A stretch of 59,551 nucleotides of DNA. Source: a virus. The notes under the pieces are model-generated. The model was not told the origin of the DNA. It did no database searches and was given only the letters and a program-made list of their open reading frames with translations. Made by a program: the position numbers and the translations under genes. Within the stretch, counting starts at the first letter, position 1. Every line of letters begins with the position of its first letter. The stretch is taken from positions 1 to 59,551 of IMG/VR virus record IMGVR_UViG_3300025789_000004, one strand, 5' to 3'. This document shows positions 23,255 to 26,902 of the stretch, piece after piece.

Positions 23255-26200
23255 TTACACAGGGTACAAGGGCGTTTCTTGCTTGTTGGGGTACGTCTTC
23301 ATGCCTTCAATTTCTTGGATGCGTTCGGCGGATCTGGTCAGCAGGCCAATATCTCGCAGGTGCCTGATCGACATAGACACAGTATCCACCAAGTCGTCAT
23401 GGCGGCCCTTTGGAAACTGACCGACTTGCGTGATCACTTCTTCGGTCCACTTCTTGTCCGGGGCGTAGATCATCCCTTCCGAGAACAAGTGCTGCACCGA
23501 ATACAGCCGCGCCATTTTGTCAAGACTTTTCGGATCCGACAACTGCACAGCAAACCCTTCATTGCCGTACAGCCTCCGCATTTCCTGCGCCACAGAGATC
23601 CCGCTGGCCTTGTTTTCAATCAGCAACTTGTCAACCTTCAGCGCCTTGCAGGTCTTGGCAACCTTCTCCACCAGATCATGGAACTCCAGCCGCTCGGTCC
23701 ATGCGTGCATCATCATGACCTTCGGCGCTGACTCATTGTACGCCCGGTCAATATACTGCGGTCGCCCATCCGCCCCAATCGTCCTGTGCGCCACGGCACT
23801 CGCATCTGTAGTGAATATGCCCCAGATTGTCATCGCAGATGGGTCATTGCTGGTTTTGGACGTATATGCCGTATCCAACGATGCCACAATGTAGTCCATC
23901 GGCGGAAAGGTCGAGTCCGGCCACAACTTCCACCAATCGCGCTTGATGATCCCACCGCCTGCAGGCTCAGGACGCTGCTGCAACTGTCCAGCCGCCATGA
24001 ACGGCCCCAATGCGCGCTCCAGCCGGGTTACTTCCTCATCGCCAAAACGATCAGGCCACAGCAAGTCACCCTCTTTCTCGCGTGGATCTTCCCAGCCAAT
24101 ACTGTTCTTGAACGCCCGATCAGCTTCATACCGCATTGGCAAACACAAGTGCGTCCAGCCAGCTGACTCTTTTTCCAGAATGTGCCCAGTCAAGTCATTC
24201 TCAGCCAATCTCTGCTGAATGACAATCATCGCCCCGGTCTTCTGATCGTTAAGACGGGTGGACATCGTGCCGTCCCACCACTCAATAGTCGATTCAATAG
24301 TTGCTTCAGAAAACGCTTCAGAGGCTGAGTTGGGGTCATCTACAATTATGCAGTTATGGGCAAGTACGCCATTAGCAAAGAAGTTGTGGCATTCTTCAAC
24401 TTGAATGTCATAGACTTTGTTCTTTGGACCGCTATATCGCTCAATTGAGCAGATGACATCATTTTGCCATGATGATGCAGGCGATGACACGATTCGCACA
24501 GCATTATCAAATTTTCCGGCACGTTGTTCCTGCTGTTCTCGTCTATGTGATGCGCGTGCAAAATTGATTTCTTTCGATTTCCGCGCTGCACCTTCTCGTC
24601 CACCAAACCACACGCCTGACAAGCGAACTCGTCCCGCTCCAAAACAATCACTCGCATATCCCGGAACTGGTTGGAATACCGGCCTAGTTTGGAAAAATTG
24701 GAATTGTGCGCACCCTTCATGCGATCCGAATGATCCGCATCCGCACAAGACGGACTGCAATAGATTGTCCAACCAGCAAATTGCGCTTTGCAACGCGGGC
24801 ATTCTTTTTTCTTGCGCTTGTCCCAACGTAATTTTTGATGGCACTCGTCCGAGCACACTTCGGAGTGCCTGTGCTTGCGCAGTTTTCCGCAAATTACACA
24901 CGCTTTTGTGTTTTTTGTGGAATGGTGTTGTGAGCAACATTTTTTTGAGCAGTATGCGTCCCGGCTTCCTTGTTTTAAGGCTTTGCGTGCCTCGTAAAGA
25001 TGCTTTTGCGTTTCTACCCCGCAGTTGTCGCATAGAAGGTTGACGATCATTTTCCGACCGTCTTTGAACAATAATCCCGTCTCCAATCCCCAATTCACAA
25101 GCTGGGACATATCCTGTCCCCTGCACGAAAATTGGATGGTCCCCAGTACACTCGACGGAAATTCCTGAAACCGTGCGTATTTCATAAAGGGTATCCGATT
25201 CAAGAAGGCGGGTTGCCAACACCCGTTTTTCTACCACCTTACCCCGTGAATGGTCAAACGATAATACTGTATCCCCTACAGAAACCTTGGAAATTGGTAC
25301 GTCTCCAAACGGCGTGGACACGTTAATCCATCCGGGAAAACATGATCCGCCTTCACCAGTCACTGCCGCACCAACTGAAGTAATCAGTCGTTCGCCACCT
25401 TGGTCATTACTAAAGCGTGACTTAGTATTCTGATCCGAATTGATCTTGAATCTTTCTCCCCACAACTTCTGGTACCATGGAGACTCAATCAATCGACGGC
25501 ATTTCACAGAGTCGCGCAACACCAACTGATTGGCATACGATGCGCAAAGAAACTGCACGCCCGGACCAGACGTCGGTGAGCGATGCTCTTGTGCCCATGT
25601 CCATGCGGGAAACGCCACAGATGTAATGGTTGAATTGTGCGTAGGGATGAGATTGCGGCCAATCAAATAAAGCCCATCTGGCGAATCTACTTGGATGCAA
25701 TGGCCAAAAAGCCCTTGCGGTTCAAGCGTCACGGACTTGAGGCCAATTGCTCGCTTAGGGGCAAATCGTTTAATTTGCTTGCGTGGAAGGGCAGTAGGAA
25801 TAGCCATTGTAGGCTGGAATGCTACTGTCCAGCATTCCTTTTTCCCTTGAATGCCTGACGTGCTCATCCGGGGCTGTGTGCTAGATACAACGGCGCGCCA
25901 CCCAAAGCTACGCACAAGCTCCGCAACGCCATCAATAATTTTCTTATTCGCATTGGAAAAATGGCACCTGTTATTCTTATCGACGCAGCCATCAGTGTCA
26001 ATCAAGCCAGCCAAAAGTTCAAGGCGTTGGCTTATGGTCCCCAAAAGATAGAGGTTTGGAATATGCTTGTCATTAAGCACGCCTGCCTCGCGCAAGCCGT
26101 TTTTGAGATTACTAGAAGCAAAGGACGTTGTGATTGCTCCAGTCCTTTTGTGTTCCCACGAGACACTGATGGAATACCCCAACGACACAATTTTGCTGAT

Positions 26201-26902
26201 GCACTCAGTATCTCGCGGGCTGTGGGTAATGCACGCCTTCCCCGACGATCCATCCCCTAGCCACGCGCCCAAGACGTAAGGATGGACAGGCAATTCAGCG
26301 CCCTTGTCAGGCATCTGCAAAGGCTCAACTAGCGGAAGTTGGTGCAACGCCCTACCCCCACTAGATGCAGCTTTGGGTTTCCCCTTTGTTTGCCCCCACC
26401 GGCCACGGCGGGGCTCCAAAAACTGCCGAGTCTCTACTGTTTCCCACAACCGGCTCATGCGATTGAACAGTGTCCATTCGTGATTTTCGTGGCAGTAGAA
26501 CACACTGCCATCAAAAAACTCAACGCGGACATTGGAAGGTGTCTTATCTGATACGGCAAGCACTTTGACTGGCTTACCAGATGGGTGAAACACAAAATCA
26601 CCTCGGGCCAAATCCCCGTGCGTTTTCCATCCTTCTGTAGTAAAAACTTCAGTGTTATCAGCTACTTGCTTGCCCATTCTGGGAGGAATGTTGATGATCA
26701 GCCGCCGTGTCTCTCCATCCACCACTGCCTGCAGATGTTCAGCCACTGCCTCAATTGGCCAACCATCTTTCCACGGGCTGGCGTCAATGTATTTCCAAGC
26801 ATTCACCAAGAAATAGTATAGGCTTTCTTCGCAGTCAGCACGATCAAGCGCTTCCAACTGCTTAATAGGATTAAGTAGTGATGGATCAAATTCTGTGTCC
26901 AT
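23255..26902 (-). CDS. terL: Terminase large subunit precursor with two inteins
   Basis: The open frame encodes 1215 residues, but only about 540 are terminase. Extein 1 (1-78) ends in IPPRMGK of Walker A. Intein 1 is residues 79-423; extein 2 (424-520) resumes with Ser and carries the ATPase core up to GEGGS. Intein 2 is 521-850; extein 3 (851-1215) starts CIIVDDP, the Walker B region, then the coupling motif IQQRLAENDL. The RNase H-type nuclease domain has ASLDTAY, LLIENKASG and RHDDLVDT. The spliced enzyme would cut concatemers and pump DNA through the portal. It starts at the ATG overlapping the terS stop (TAATG). Both inteins interrupt catalytic motifs, so activity should require splicing. 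Confidence 0.93.
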   Translation of the reverse strand: MDTEFDPSLLNPIKQLEALDRADCEESLYYFLVNAWKYIDASPWKDGWPIEAVAEHLQAVVDGETRRLIINIPPRMGKQVADNTEVFTTEGWKTHGDLARGDFVFHPSGKPVKVLAVSDKTPSNVRVEFFDGSVFYCHENHEWTLFNRMSRLWETVETRQFLEPRRGRWGQTKGKPKAASSGGRALHQLPLVEPLQMPDKGAELPVHPYVLGAWLGDGSSGKACITHSPRDTECISKIVSLGYSISVSWEHKRTGAITTSFASSNLKNGLREAGVLNDKHIPNLYLLGTISQRLELLAGLIDTDGCVDKNNRCHFSNANKKIIDGVAELVRSFGWRAVVSSTQPRMSTSGIQGKKECWTVAFQPTMAIPTALPRKQIKRFAPKRAIGLKSVTLEPQGLFGHCIQVDSPDGLYLIGRNLIPTHNSTITSVAFPAWTWAQEHRSPTSGPGVQFLCASYANQLVLRDSVKCRRLIESPWYQKLWGERFKINSDQNTKSRFSNDQGGERLITSVGAAVTGEGGSCFPGWINVSTPFGDVPISKVSVGDTVLSFDHSRGKVVEKRVLATRLLESDTLYEIRTVSGISVECTGDHPIFVQGTGYVPACELGIGDGIIVQRRSENDRQPSMRQLRGRNAKASLRGTQSLKTRKPGRILLKKMLLTTPFHKKHKSVCNLRKTAQAQALRSVLGRVPSKITLGQAQEKRMPALQSAICWLDNLLQSVLCGCGSFGSHEGCAQFQFFQTRPVFQPVPGYASDCFGAGRVRLSGVWFGGREGAARKSKEINFARASHRREQQEQRAGKFDNAVRIVSSPASSWQNDVICSIERYSGPKNKVYDIQVEECHNFFANGVLAHNCIIVDDPNSASEAFSEATIESTIEWWDGTMSTRLNDQKTGAMIVIQQRLAENDLTGHILEKESAGWTHLCLPMRYEADRAFKNSIGWEDPREKEGDLLWPDRFGDEEVTRLERALGPFMAAGQLQQRPEPAGGGIIKRDWWKLWPDSTFPPMDYIVASLDTAYTSKTSNDPSAMTIWGIFTTDASAVAHRTIGADGRPQYIDRAYNESAPKVMMMHAWTERLEFHDLVEKVAKTCKALKVDKLLIENKASGISVAQEMRRLYGNEGFAVQLSDPKSLDKMARLYSVQHLFSEGMIYAPDKKWTEEVITQVGQFPKGRHDDLVDTVSMSIRHLRDIGLLTRSAERIQEIEGMKTYPNKQETPLYPV
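24346..25050 (-). CDS. HNH endonuclease encoded out of frame inside intein 2
   Basis: The protein has 234 residues from the ATG at 25050 (M-I-V-N-L-L-C-D-N-C). Several Cys pairs follow (YCSKKCC, CVICGK, CPRCKAQF, YCSPSC), then an HNH core with CQACGLVDE, HAHHIDENSRNN and LCESCHRLHHHG. The last ~40 residues are read from DNA that also encodes the intein C-terminal block, and the frame stops seven bases past the intein. The frame differs from the terminase frame, which is open throughout. The ribosome site before the ATG is weak (CGGAAA). It may be translated independently or by frameshifting. The open frame extends upstream to 25203. Confidence 0.85.
   Translation of the reverse strand: MIVNLLCDNCGVETQKHLYEARKALKQGSRDAYCSKKCCSQHHSTKNTKACVICGKLRKHRHSEVCSDECHQKLRWDKRKKKECPRCKAQFAGWTIYCSPSCADADHSDRMKGAHNSNFSKLGRYSNQFRDMRVIVLERDEFACQACGLVDEKVQRGNRKKSILHAHHIDENSRNNVPENLIMLCESCHRLHHHGKMMSSAQLSDIAVQRTKSMTFKLKNATTSLLMAYLPITA
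24353..25342 (-). other. Intein 2 of TerL, inserted before Walker B
   Basis: Residues 521-850 of the precursor. It begins CFPGWINVSTPFGDVPI (block A), includes ECTGDHPIFVQGTGYV (block B, with the TxxH-type pair), and ends VYDIQVEECHNFFANGVLAH plus the terminal Asn before Cys (blocks F and G). The real splicing domain is about 97 + 40 residues, a normal mini-intein size. The 194 residues between (24470-25051) read as unrelated low-meaning sequence, because another frame there encodes an HNH endonuclease. Confidence 0.9.
25634..26668 (-). other. Intein 1 of TerL with LAGLIDADG endonuclease, inserted in Walker A
   Basis: Residues 79-423 of the precursor, splitting the P-loop between Lys and Ser. 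The N-terminal residue is Gln (QVADNTEVFTTEGW), a less common but known class of intein start. The homing endonuclease motifs are YVLGAWLGDG (near residue 210) and LLAGLIDTDG (near 296). The C-terminus LIPTHN followed by Ser is a standard block G. The single-frame layout with a dodecapeptide endonuclease is classical. Confidence 0.92.

What the first reader, a model, noticed from the sequence alone, without database searches (positions are those of the whole stretch)
24346..25342. HNH endonuclease gene nested out of frame inside an intein that stays open
The second TerL intein has a normal mini-intein split into 97- and 40-residue halves. The 194 codons between them make no sense in the intein frame, but in another frame of the same strand they encode a full Cys-knuckle HNH endonuclease. 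The terminase frame nevertheless has no stop across this stretch; by chance alone that is roughly (61/64)^194, about 1 in 10,000, ignoring composition. This suggests selection to keep two frames open: the invader keeps its own gene while the host protein can still be translated and spliced. Known inteins carry the endonuclease fused in frame. The alternatives, programmed frameshifting or a pair of compensating indels, are also interesting.
Basis: partly seen in the sequence, partly recalled or inferred. Interest (0 to 1): 0.92.

Follow-up and report, generated by a model that had tools for sequence, protein, structure and literature searches.

The report
Nuclease gene hidden inside phage intein
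A self-splicing insert in a phage DNA-packaging gene carries a second, complete DNA-cutting enzyme written in a shifted reading frame of the same DNA, and evolution has kept both frames readable in about 80 separate phage lineages.

Summary
The second TerL intein (25342-24353, minus strand) has an intact splicing domain. Its middle makes no fold in the intein frame, but in the +1 frame it encodes an HNH nuclease. It overlaps splicing block B and ends within a few bases of the intein's 3' end.

Given that nuclease, a stop-free intein frame has probability about 1e-8. Searches found 78 lineages (95% nt clusters) with an HNH in this TerL intein site. All 78 have it in the +1 frame and none has an intein-frame stop across the HNH match. 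Two named isolates, Gordonia phage Clown and Synechococcus phage S-EIVl, share the layout and are annotated only as terminase. Free-standing HNH relatives have that frame closed. Substitution patterns show purifying selection on HNH through the middle and on both frames around block B. Sequencing error and chance are excluded.

Best explanation: a mobile intein whose homing endonuclease is a separate overlapping gene, translated by internal initiation. Initiation, splicing and cleavage are inferred. Closest prior art: the ShiLan out-of-frame HNH in a phage methylase, not an intein. A relevant 2025 preprint could not be read.

The parts
23255..26902 (-). terL, large terminase subunit, one open frame of 1215 aa with two inteins
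   Evidence: Terminase_6C, Intein_splicing
24353..25342 (-). intein 2 (330 aa) at the TerL Walker B site, GEGGS|C...HN|C-IIVDDP
   Evidence: intein-free relatives read GEGGS|IIVVDDP
25058..25342 (-). N-terminal splicing half (Cys1, block B TGDH), pLDDT about 95
   Evidence: C1, T66, H69 invariant in 23 inteins
24353..24475 (-). C-terminal splicing half (VYDIQV, HN), pLDDT about 95
   Evidence: V310, N330 invariant, Y311/D312 nearly so
24476..25057 (-). intein-frame linker of 194 codons, no stop, nearly all with pLDDT below 50, amino acids free to change
24346..25185 (-). HNH homing-endonuclease gene in the +1 frame, 279 aa plus stop TAA
   Evidence: (mean pLDDT 91.6)
25183..25185 (-). proposed ATG start of the HNH gene; ATG or GTG within 3 codons of it in 16 of 16 close lineages
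25069..25071 (-). alternative TTG start with a better Shine-Dalgarno (GGAG) in the intein GD codons
25058..25185 (-). stretch coding both the splicing domain (block B) and the HNH N-terminus; both frames constrained in relatives
24469..24621 (-). HNH catalytic domain (residues 189-239); H212, H213, N225, H234, H238 invariant in 28 relatives
24346..24348 (-). HNH stop codon TAA, lying in the first C-extein codons TGC ATA ATT

Best explanation
This is a mobile intein in the phage terminase gene whose homing endonuclease is a separate, overlapping gene. Read in the terL frame, the DNA gives a TerL precursor whose splicing domain is interrupted by a loop of about 190 disordered residues; the intein excises itself and leaves active TerL (catalytic residues shown, splicing inferred). 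Read in the +1 frame from a start codon inside the N-intein half, the same mRNA gives a free HNH nuclease with zinc knuckles (intact and under purifying selection: shown; translation by internal initiation: inferred). The nuclease cuts intein-free terL alleles near the Walker B codons in a mixed infection, and repair copies the whole element, including the +1 Cys codon (inferred from family knowledge and from patchy distribution). Host need for TerL keeps the intein frame free of stops; homing keeps the HNH frame intact.
For: Same architecture in 78 of 78 lineages (95% nt clusters), always +1, no intein-frame stop across the HNH match over 19,376 codons in all; 72 have both frames open; L270 and L290 add two. 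A query that ignored HNH (intein C-end plus C-extein) returned 80 loci: 68 with HNH in +1, 12 without, none in frame or +2. Exact chance 7.9e-9 to 1.8e-10 for this copy; 29 of 29 relatives open where 4-19 stops are expected; 15 of 15 free-standing relatives closed. Codon-phase profile: exteins vary at TerL third positions, the intein middle at HNH third positions, with a switch where the conserved start lies. Substitution rates (x1000): core intein-N/HNH-S 128 against intein-S/HNH-N 29; block B overlap 61 and 22; exteins 11-18 and 154-191. AlphaFold: HNH frame mean pLDDT 91.6 over all 279 residues; intein frame folded only at 1-95 and 290-330, with HINT matches in PDB. Intein-free alleles common in TerL relatives (72). 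HNH identity far above TerL identity in some pairs (62.6% against 35.7%). Decay breaks HNH, not the intein: L054 nonsense, L064/L066/L070 deletions.
Against: No protein evidence for either product. The Shine-Dalgarno at the ATG is weak (-3.3, against -5 to -9 for many genes of this phage) and a TTG at 25071 has a better one, so the true start is uncertain. In the S-EIVl group the start must be a TTG without a clear Shine-Dalgarno. Cleavage of intein-free terL is untested. L291 shows one indel that breaks both frames, and L251 is truncated. The HNH model has no PDB match below E 1e-3; best is the HNH domain of ScoMcrA/McrA at 0.007.
Confidence: 0.83

Rival explanations
1. Programmed +1 ribosomal frameshifting near the end of the N-intein half makes a TerL-N/intein-N/HNH fusion; the HNH has no start of its own.
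For: HNH is always +1 of the intein, and its frame is open for some codons upstream of the ATG (15 codons in the window copy). In the S-EIVl group the start codon is not ATG and lacks a clear Shine-Dalgarno.
Against: In the window clade several relatives have HNH-frame stops only 8-9 codons before the conserved start. ATG or GTG occurs within a 3-codon window in 16 of 16 lineages, including a shift of the ATG by three codons in some lineages. No shared slippery sequence is visible. HNH-frame constraint starts at the start codon.
Confidence: 0.12
2. Chance overlap or sequencing indels: HNH and intein are really in one frame, or the open frame is luck.
For: None found.
Against: P about 1e-8 for this copy, 78 of 78 lineages, isolate genomes, two other assemblies 100% identical over 5.7-5.9 kb.
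Confidence: 0.005
3. The HNH is real but serves packaging or regulation of the host phage rather than homing, as some phage HNH proteins assist terminase.
For: It is encoded inside terL, and HNH proteins are known partners of terminases (reference 24 of PMC12613952, cited there).
Against: Most close TerL relatives lack the element (72 intein-free) and package without it; the HNH decays in some copies while TerL stays intact. It travels with the intein, with HNH identity above TerL identity in some pairs.
Confidence: 0.06
4. The insertion is not spliced and TerL keeps it as a loop, as proposed for the ShiLan methylase insertion.
For: A ShiLan-like out-of-frame HNH exists in methylases here too (L068, L072, L074, L078, L079).
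Against: All splicing residues are invariant or nearly so in 23 inteins; Pfam Intein_splicing hits 35 of 41; HINT fold matches; the insert splits the essential Walker B segment.
Confidence: 0.03

Closest known systems
[quoted passage not shown]
   Same: HNH with zinc fingers in a shifted frame of an insertion that leaves the host frame open; patchy distribution; unannotated until looked for
   Different: No splicing domain there and the authors propose it is retained. HNH reported in the third frame, GTG 18 bp into the insert; here +1, inside a canonical intein, overlapping its splicing block, with constraint measured in both frames
Canonical HEN-bearing inteins (LAGLIDADG or HNH nested in frame; PMC6801210 on the conserved HEN insertion site)
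   Same: Mini-intein with the endonuclease placed at the usual site between N and C halves; mobile, sporadic
   Different: Endonuclease is a separate polypeptide in another frame, so it is not part of the excised intein
Split inteins with a free-standing endonuclease gene between the halves ('fractured genes', Dassa et al. 2009, from memory)
   Same: Endonuclease encoded as its own gene inside the intein locus; found here at the same TerL site (L247, L254, L262, L266-268; GIY-YIG in L254)
   Different: There the host gene is broken and must trans-splice; here the host frame is continuous
Gosselin, Arsenault and Gogarten preprint 10.1101/2025.01.02.630785 on actinobacteriophage inteins with non-canonical architecture
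   Same: May include the Gordonia phage Clown terminase intein
   Different: Not held in the library and not read; overlap with this finding unknown
phrog_1271 HNH endonucleases
   Same: Best family hit of the HNH frame, 1.4e-24 over residues 51-244
   Different: The N-terminal 50 residues, coded over splicing block B, lie outside the match

Membership tests
Mobile intein (class 1) | Nucleophile Cys1, block B TxxH, C-terminal HN, Cys+1 | tested here: met
   C1, T66, H69, N330 invariant in 23 inteins; N|C at nearly all junctions, one N|S
Mobile intein (class 1) | HINT fold | tested here: met
   pLDDT about 95 at both halves; Foldseek matches to mini-inteins at 1e-6 to 1e-7
Mobile intein (class 1) | Precise insertion in a conserved host site, absent in relatives | tested here: met
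   72 relatives with an empty site, typically GEGGS|IIVVDDP, closest 85% identical
Mobile intein (class 1) | Self-splicing activity | not testable with these tools
   needs expression
Canonical endonuclease-bearing intein | Endonuclease fused in the intein frame | tested here: not met
   HNH +1 in 78 of 78 lineages, never in frame
HNH homing endonuclease | HNH catalytic residues and zinc knuckles conserved | tested here: met
   H212, H213, N225, H234, H238 and several zinc Cys invariant in 28 sequences; PF01844 above cut-off
HNH homing endonuclease | Cleaves the intein-free allele and promotes its own copying | not testable with these tools
   only indirect: patchy distribution and HNH/TerL identity discordance
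Split intein / fractured gene | Host frame interrupted, two intein halves on separate ORFs | tested here: not met
   terL frame open 26902-23255
ShiLan-type insertion | No intein splicing motifs in the host frame | tested here: not met
   Intein_splicing 4.1e-17
Overlapping gene pair | Both frames under purifying selection in the overlap | tested here: met
   S-EIVl group, block B overlap: rates 61 and 22 against 128-191 where the changed frame is free; in the linker only stop avoidance is seen in the intein frame

The most novel reading that the evidence does not exclude
A widespread, ancient class of dual-coded inteins: the homing endonuclease is an overlapping gene that starts inside the splicing domain, ends at the intein border, and is expressed independently of splicing, so protein splicing and homing are encoded on the same DNA in two frames and can be tuned and lost separately.
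Probability: 0.65. Interest if true: 0.87.

Novelty: new variant of a known kind. Interest (0 to 1): 0.82.

Why it matters
Inteins are usually described as one polypeptide with a splicing domain and a nested endonuclease. Here two proteins share the DNA, and the endonuclease gene reaches into the splicing domain. That gives a natural test of how overlapping genes arise and persist, explains how a free endonuclease can live inside a gene that must stay readable, and sits beside split inteins at the very same TerL site as an alternative outcome. It also means standard annotation misses these nucleases: both isolate genomes that carry one list only a terminase.

Tried and rejected
Sequencing error or paired indels (rejected). 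Chance openness from composition (rejected; the other shifted frame of the same gene holds 11 stops). HNH confined to the 194-codon middle with ATG at 25050 (rejected in favour of 25185). Slippery-site frameshift (no shared motif by eye; in S-EIVl a CTT AGT after GGAG resembles prfB only superficially and is not conserved). GTG after AGGAGAT in S-EIVl as a general start: missing in most relatives. Claim that the C-extein codons are selected to hold the HNH stop: weak, 14 of 16 against 27 of 56, p 0.009, not corrected for relatedness. Bacterial genome collection: the first alignment found no relative and the broader alignment was too diverse to search with. First attempts at profile and junction scripts failed or undercounted and were redone.

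Full report
Observation. The minus-strand ORF 26902-23255 is TerL with two inteins. Intein 2 is 25342-24353, 330 aa, Cys1 to Asn330 followed by Cys. Pfam Intein_splicing matches it at 4.1e-17 with the middle skipped. The +1 frame of the middle matches HNH (PF01844 above its cut-off; phrog_1271 at 1.4e-24). The terL frame has no stop throughout. 'HNH is +1' here means that HNH codons start one base after TerL codons.

Chance. With the HNH protein fixed and synonymous codons drawn from the phage's own usage, the exact probability that the intein frame has no stop is 7.9e-9 for the 196-codon core and 1.8e-10 for the 279-codon gene. Stops in the intein frame need a T in the third position before AAN, AGN or GAN codons. 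At 57 such places where T was possible it is never used, against 58 of 154 elsewhere. Across 29 relatives 4-19 stops were expected and none seen. Fifteen free-standing relatives of the HNH all have stops in the same frame.

Breadth. The phage collection holds two named isolates with the same layout, Gordonia phage Clown and Synechococcus phage S-EIVl, both annotated only as terminase (no others with three more queries). Searches of viral contigs gave 168 loci with an HNH match and a TerL-type intein end, which form 78 clusters at 95% nucleotide identity. HNH is +1 in all 78, and no intein-frame stop falls within the HNH match (19,376 codons in all); 72 have both frames open. L270 and L290 add two lineages. 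A search with the intein C-end plus C-extein, which does not see HNH, returned 80 loci: 68 with HNH in +1, 12 without, none in frame or +2. The frame is shared by descent, so 78 is not 78 independent choices of frame. The absence of stops, however, has had to be kept up in every lineage.

Boundaries of the nuclease gene. In the window clade variation sits at TerL third positions in the exteins, moves to HNH third positions inside the intein and returns near the end; the S-EIVl group shows the same (the window-clade table there is printed one base out of register, so its first column is the TerL third position). The switch falls at an ATG (window 25185) in the N-intein half, before block B. ATG or GTG is present within a 3-codon window there in 16 of 16 close lineages. 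The first HNH-frame stop lies between -60 and +12 nt of the intein's 3' end in 70 of 78, so the nuclease gene is all but confined to the mobile DNA. AlphaFold gives the 279-residue HNH frame mean pLDDT 91.6, including the part coded over block B. The intein frame is folded only at 1-95 and 290-330, which match known mini-inteins.

Selection in two frames. Eight independent pairs in the S-EIVl group give these rates per weighted opportunity (x1000). Exteins: changes silent in TerL 154-191, changes silent only in the +1 frame 11-18. HNH core: silent in HNH only 128, silent in the intein only 29. So through the core the HNH sequence is held while the intein-frame residues are free, apart from stops. 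Block B overlap: 61 and 22, below the free rates of either frame, so both are held. Catalytic residues of both proteins are conserved.

Life cycle. Seventy-two TerL relatives have an empty site, typically GEGGS|IIVVDDP, the closest 85% identical over the C-extein. In some pairs the HNH is far more similar than TerL (62.6% against 35.7%, L273/L295), as expected of transfer between divergent phages. Decay hits the HNH: a single nonsense change in L054 and internal deletions in L064, L066 and L070 leave the intein frame intact. Two exceptions were looked at: L291 has a mid-element shift that breaks both frames, and L251 is a truncated copy. At the same site other phages have mini-inteins of 135-146 aa, or split inteins with a separate ORF between the halves, GIY-YIG in L254.

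Mechanism. Shown: intact splicing residues, intact nuclease residues, two constrained frames, patchy occurrence. Inferred: splicing with the long loop; internal initiation on terL mRNA; cleavage of the empty terL allele and repair copying. The weak point is initiation: the Shine-Dalgarno at the ATG is weak (-3.3) and a TTG at 25071 has a better one. A +1 frameshift cannot be excluded, but HNH-frame stops 8-9 codons before the start in several relatives, and the absence of a shared slippery site, make it unlikely.

Prior work. The ShiLan element in a mycobacteriophage methylase (PMC11855218) is the closest published case: an out-of-frame HNH in an open insertion, but without splicing motifs. 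Crystal-structure work states that endonuclease domains in inteins sit at one conserved nested site (PMC6801210). Full-text searches found no report of an out-of-frame endonuclease in an intein. The preprint 10.1101/2025.01.02.630785, cited by the ShiLan paper for overlapping frames in actinobacteriophages, is not held. It may describe part of this, so the novelty grade is kept at new variant of a known kind.

Noticed in passing
window 26668-25634 (-): Intein 1 of the same TerL, in the Walker A motif (GK|Q...THN|ST), begins with Gln instead of Cys/Ser and has a Trp in block B and a Cys in block F, as in class 3 inteins; LAGLIDADG endonuclease in frame.
   Followed up: partly
L068 4782-5291, L072 4845-5375, L074 4791-5186, L078 4878-5294, L079 4758-5264: DNA methylases (C5 methylase, PF00145, among these hosts) carrying a short out-of-frame (+1) HNH of another family (GRLED motif) with no intein motifs: ShiLan-like elements.
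   Followed up: partly
L247, L248, L254, L262, L266-L268: Split TerL inteins at the same Walker B site with a separate ORF between the halves; a GIY-YIG domain is confirmed in L254 only.
   Followed up: partly
L291 and L251: Two copies in which the intein frame is closed: one mid-element shift of both frames, one truncated element.
   Followed up: partly
MT771343 gene 5 and KJ410740 54080-56620: The hidden HNH genes of Gordonia phage Clown and Synechococcus phage S-EIVl are not annotated; only terminase is listed.
   Followed up: yes
window 24352-24341 (-) and relatives: In many intein-bearing alleles the HNH stop is formed by Ile ATA or Val GTA/GTG codons in the first C-extein codons; enrichment over empty alleles is weak (14/16 against 27/56).
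   Followed up: partly
L053 4530 and 20 relatives of the S-EIVl group: Proposed TTG start (AAA TTG ATT GGA GC) kept in 21 of 22 sequences although it lies in intein codons and lacks a clear Shine-Dalgarno.
   Followed up: partly
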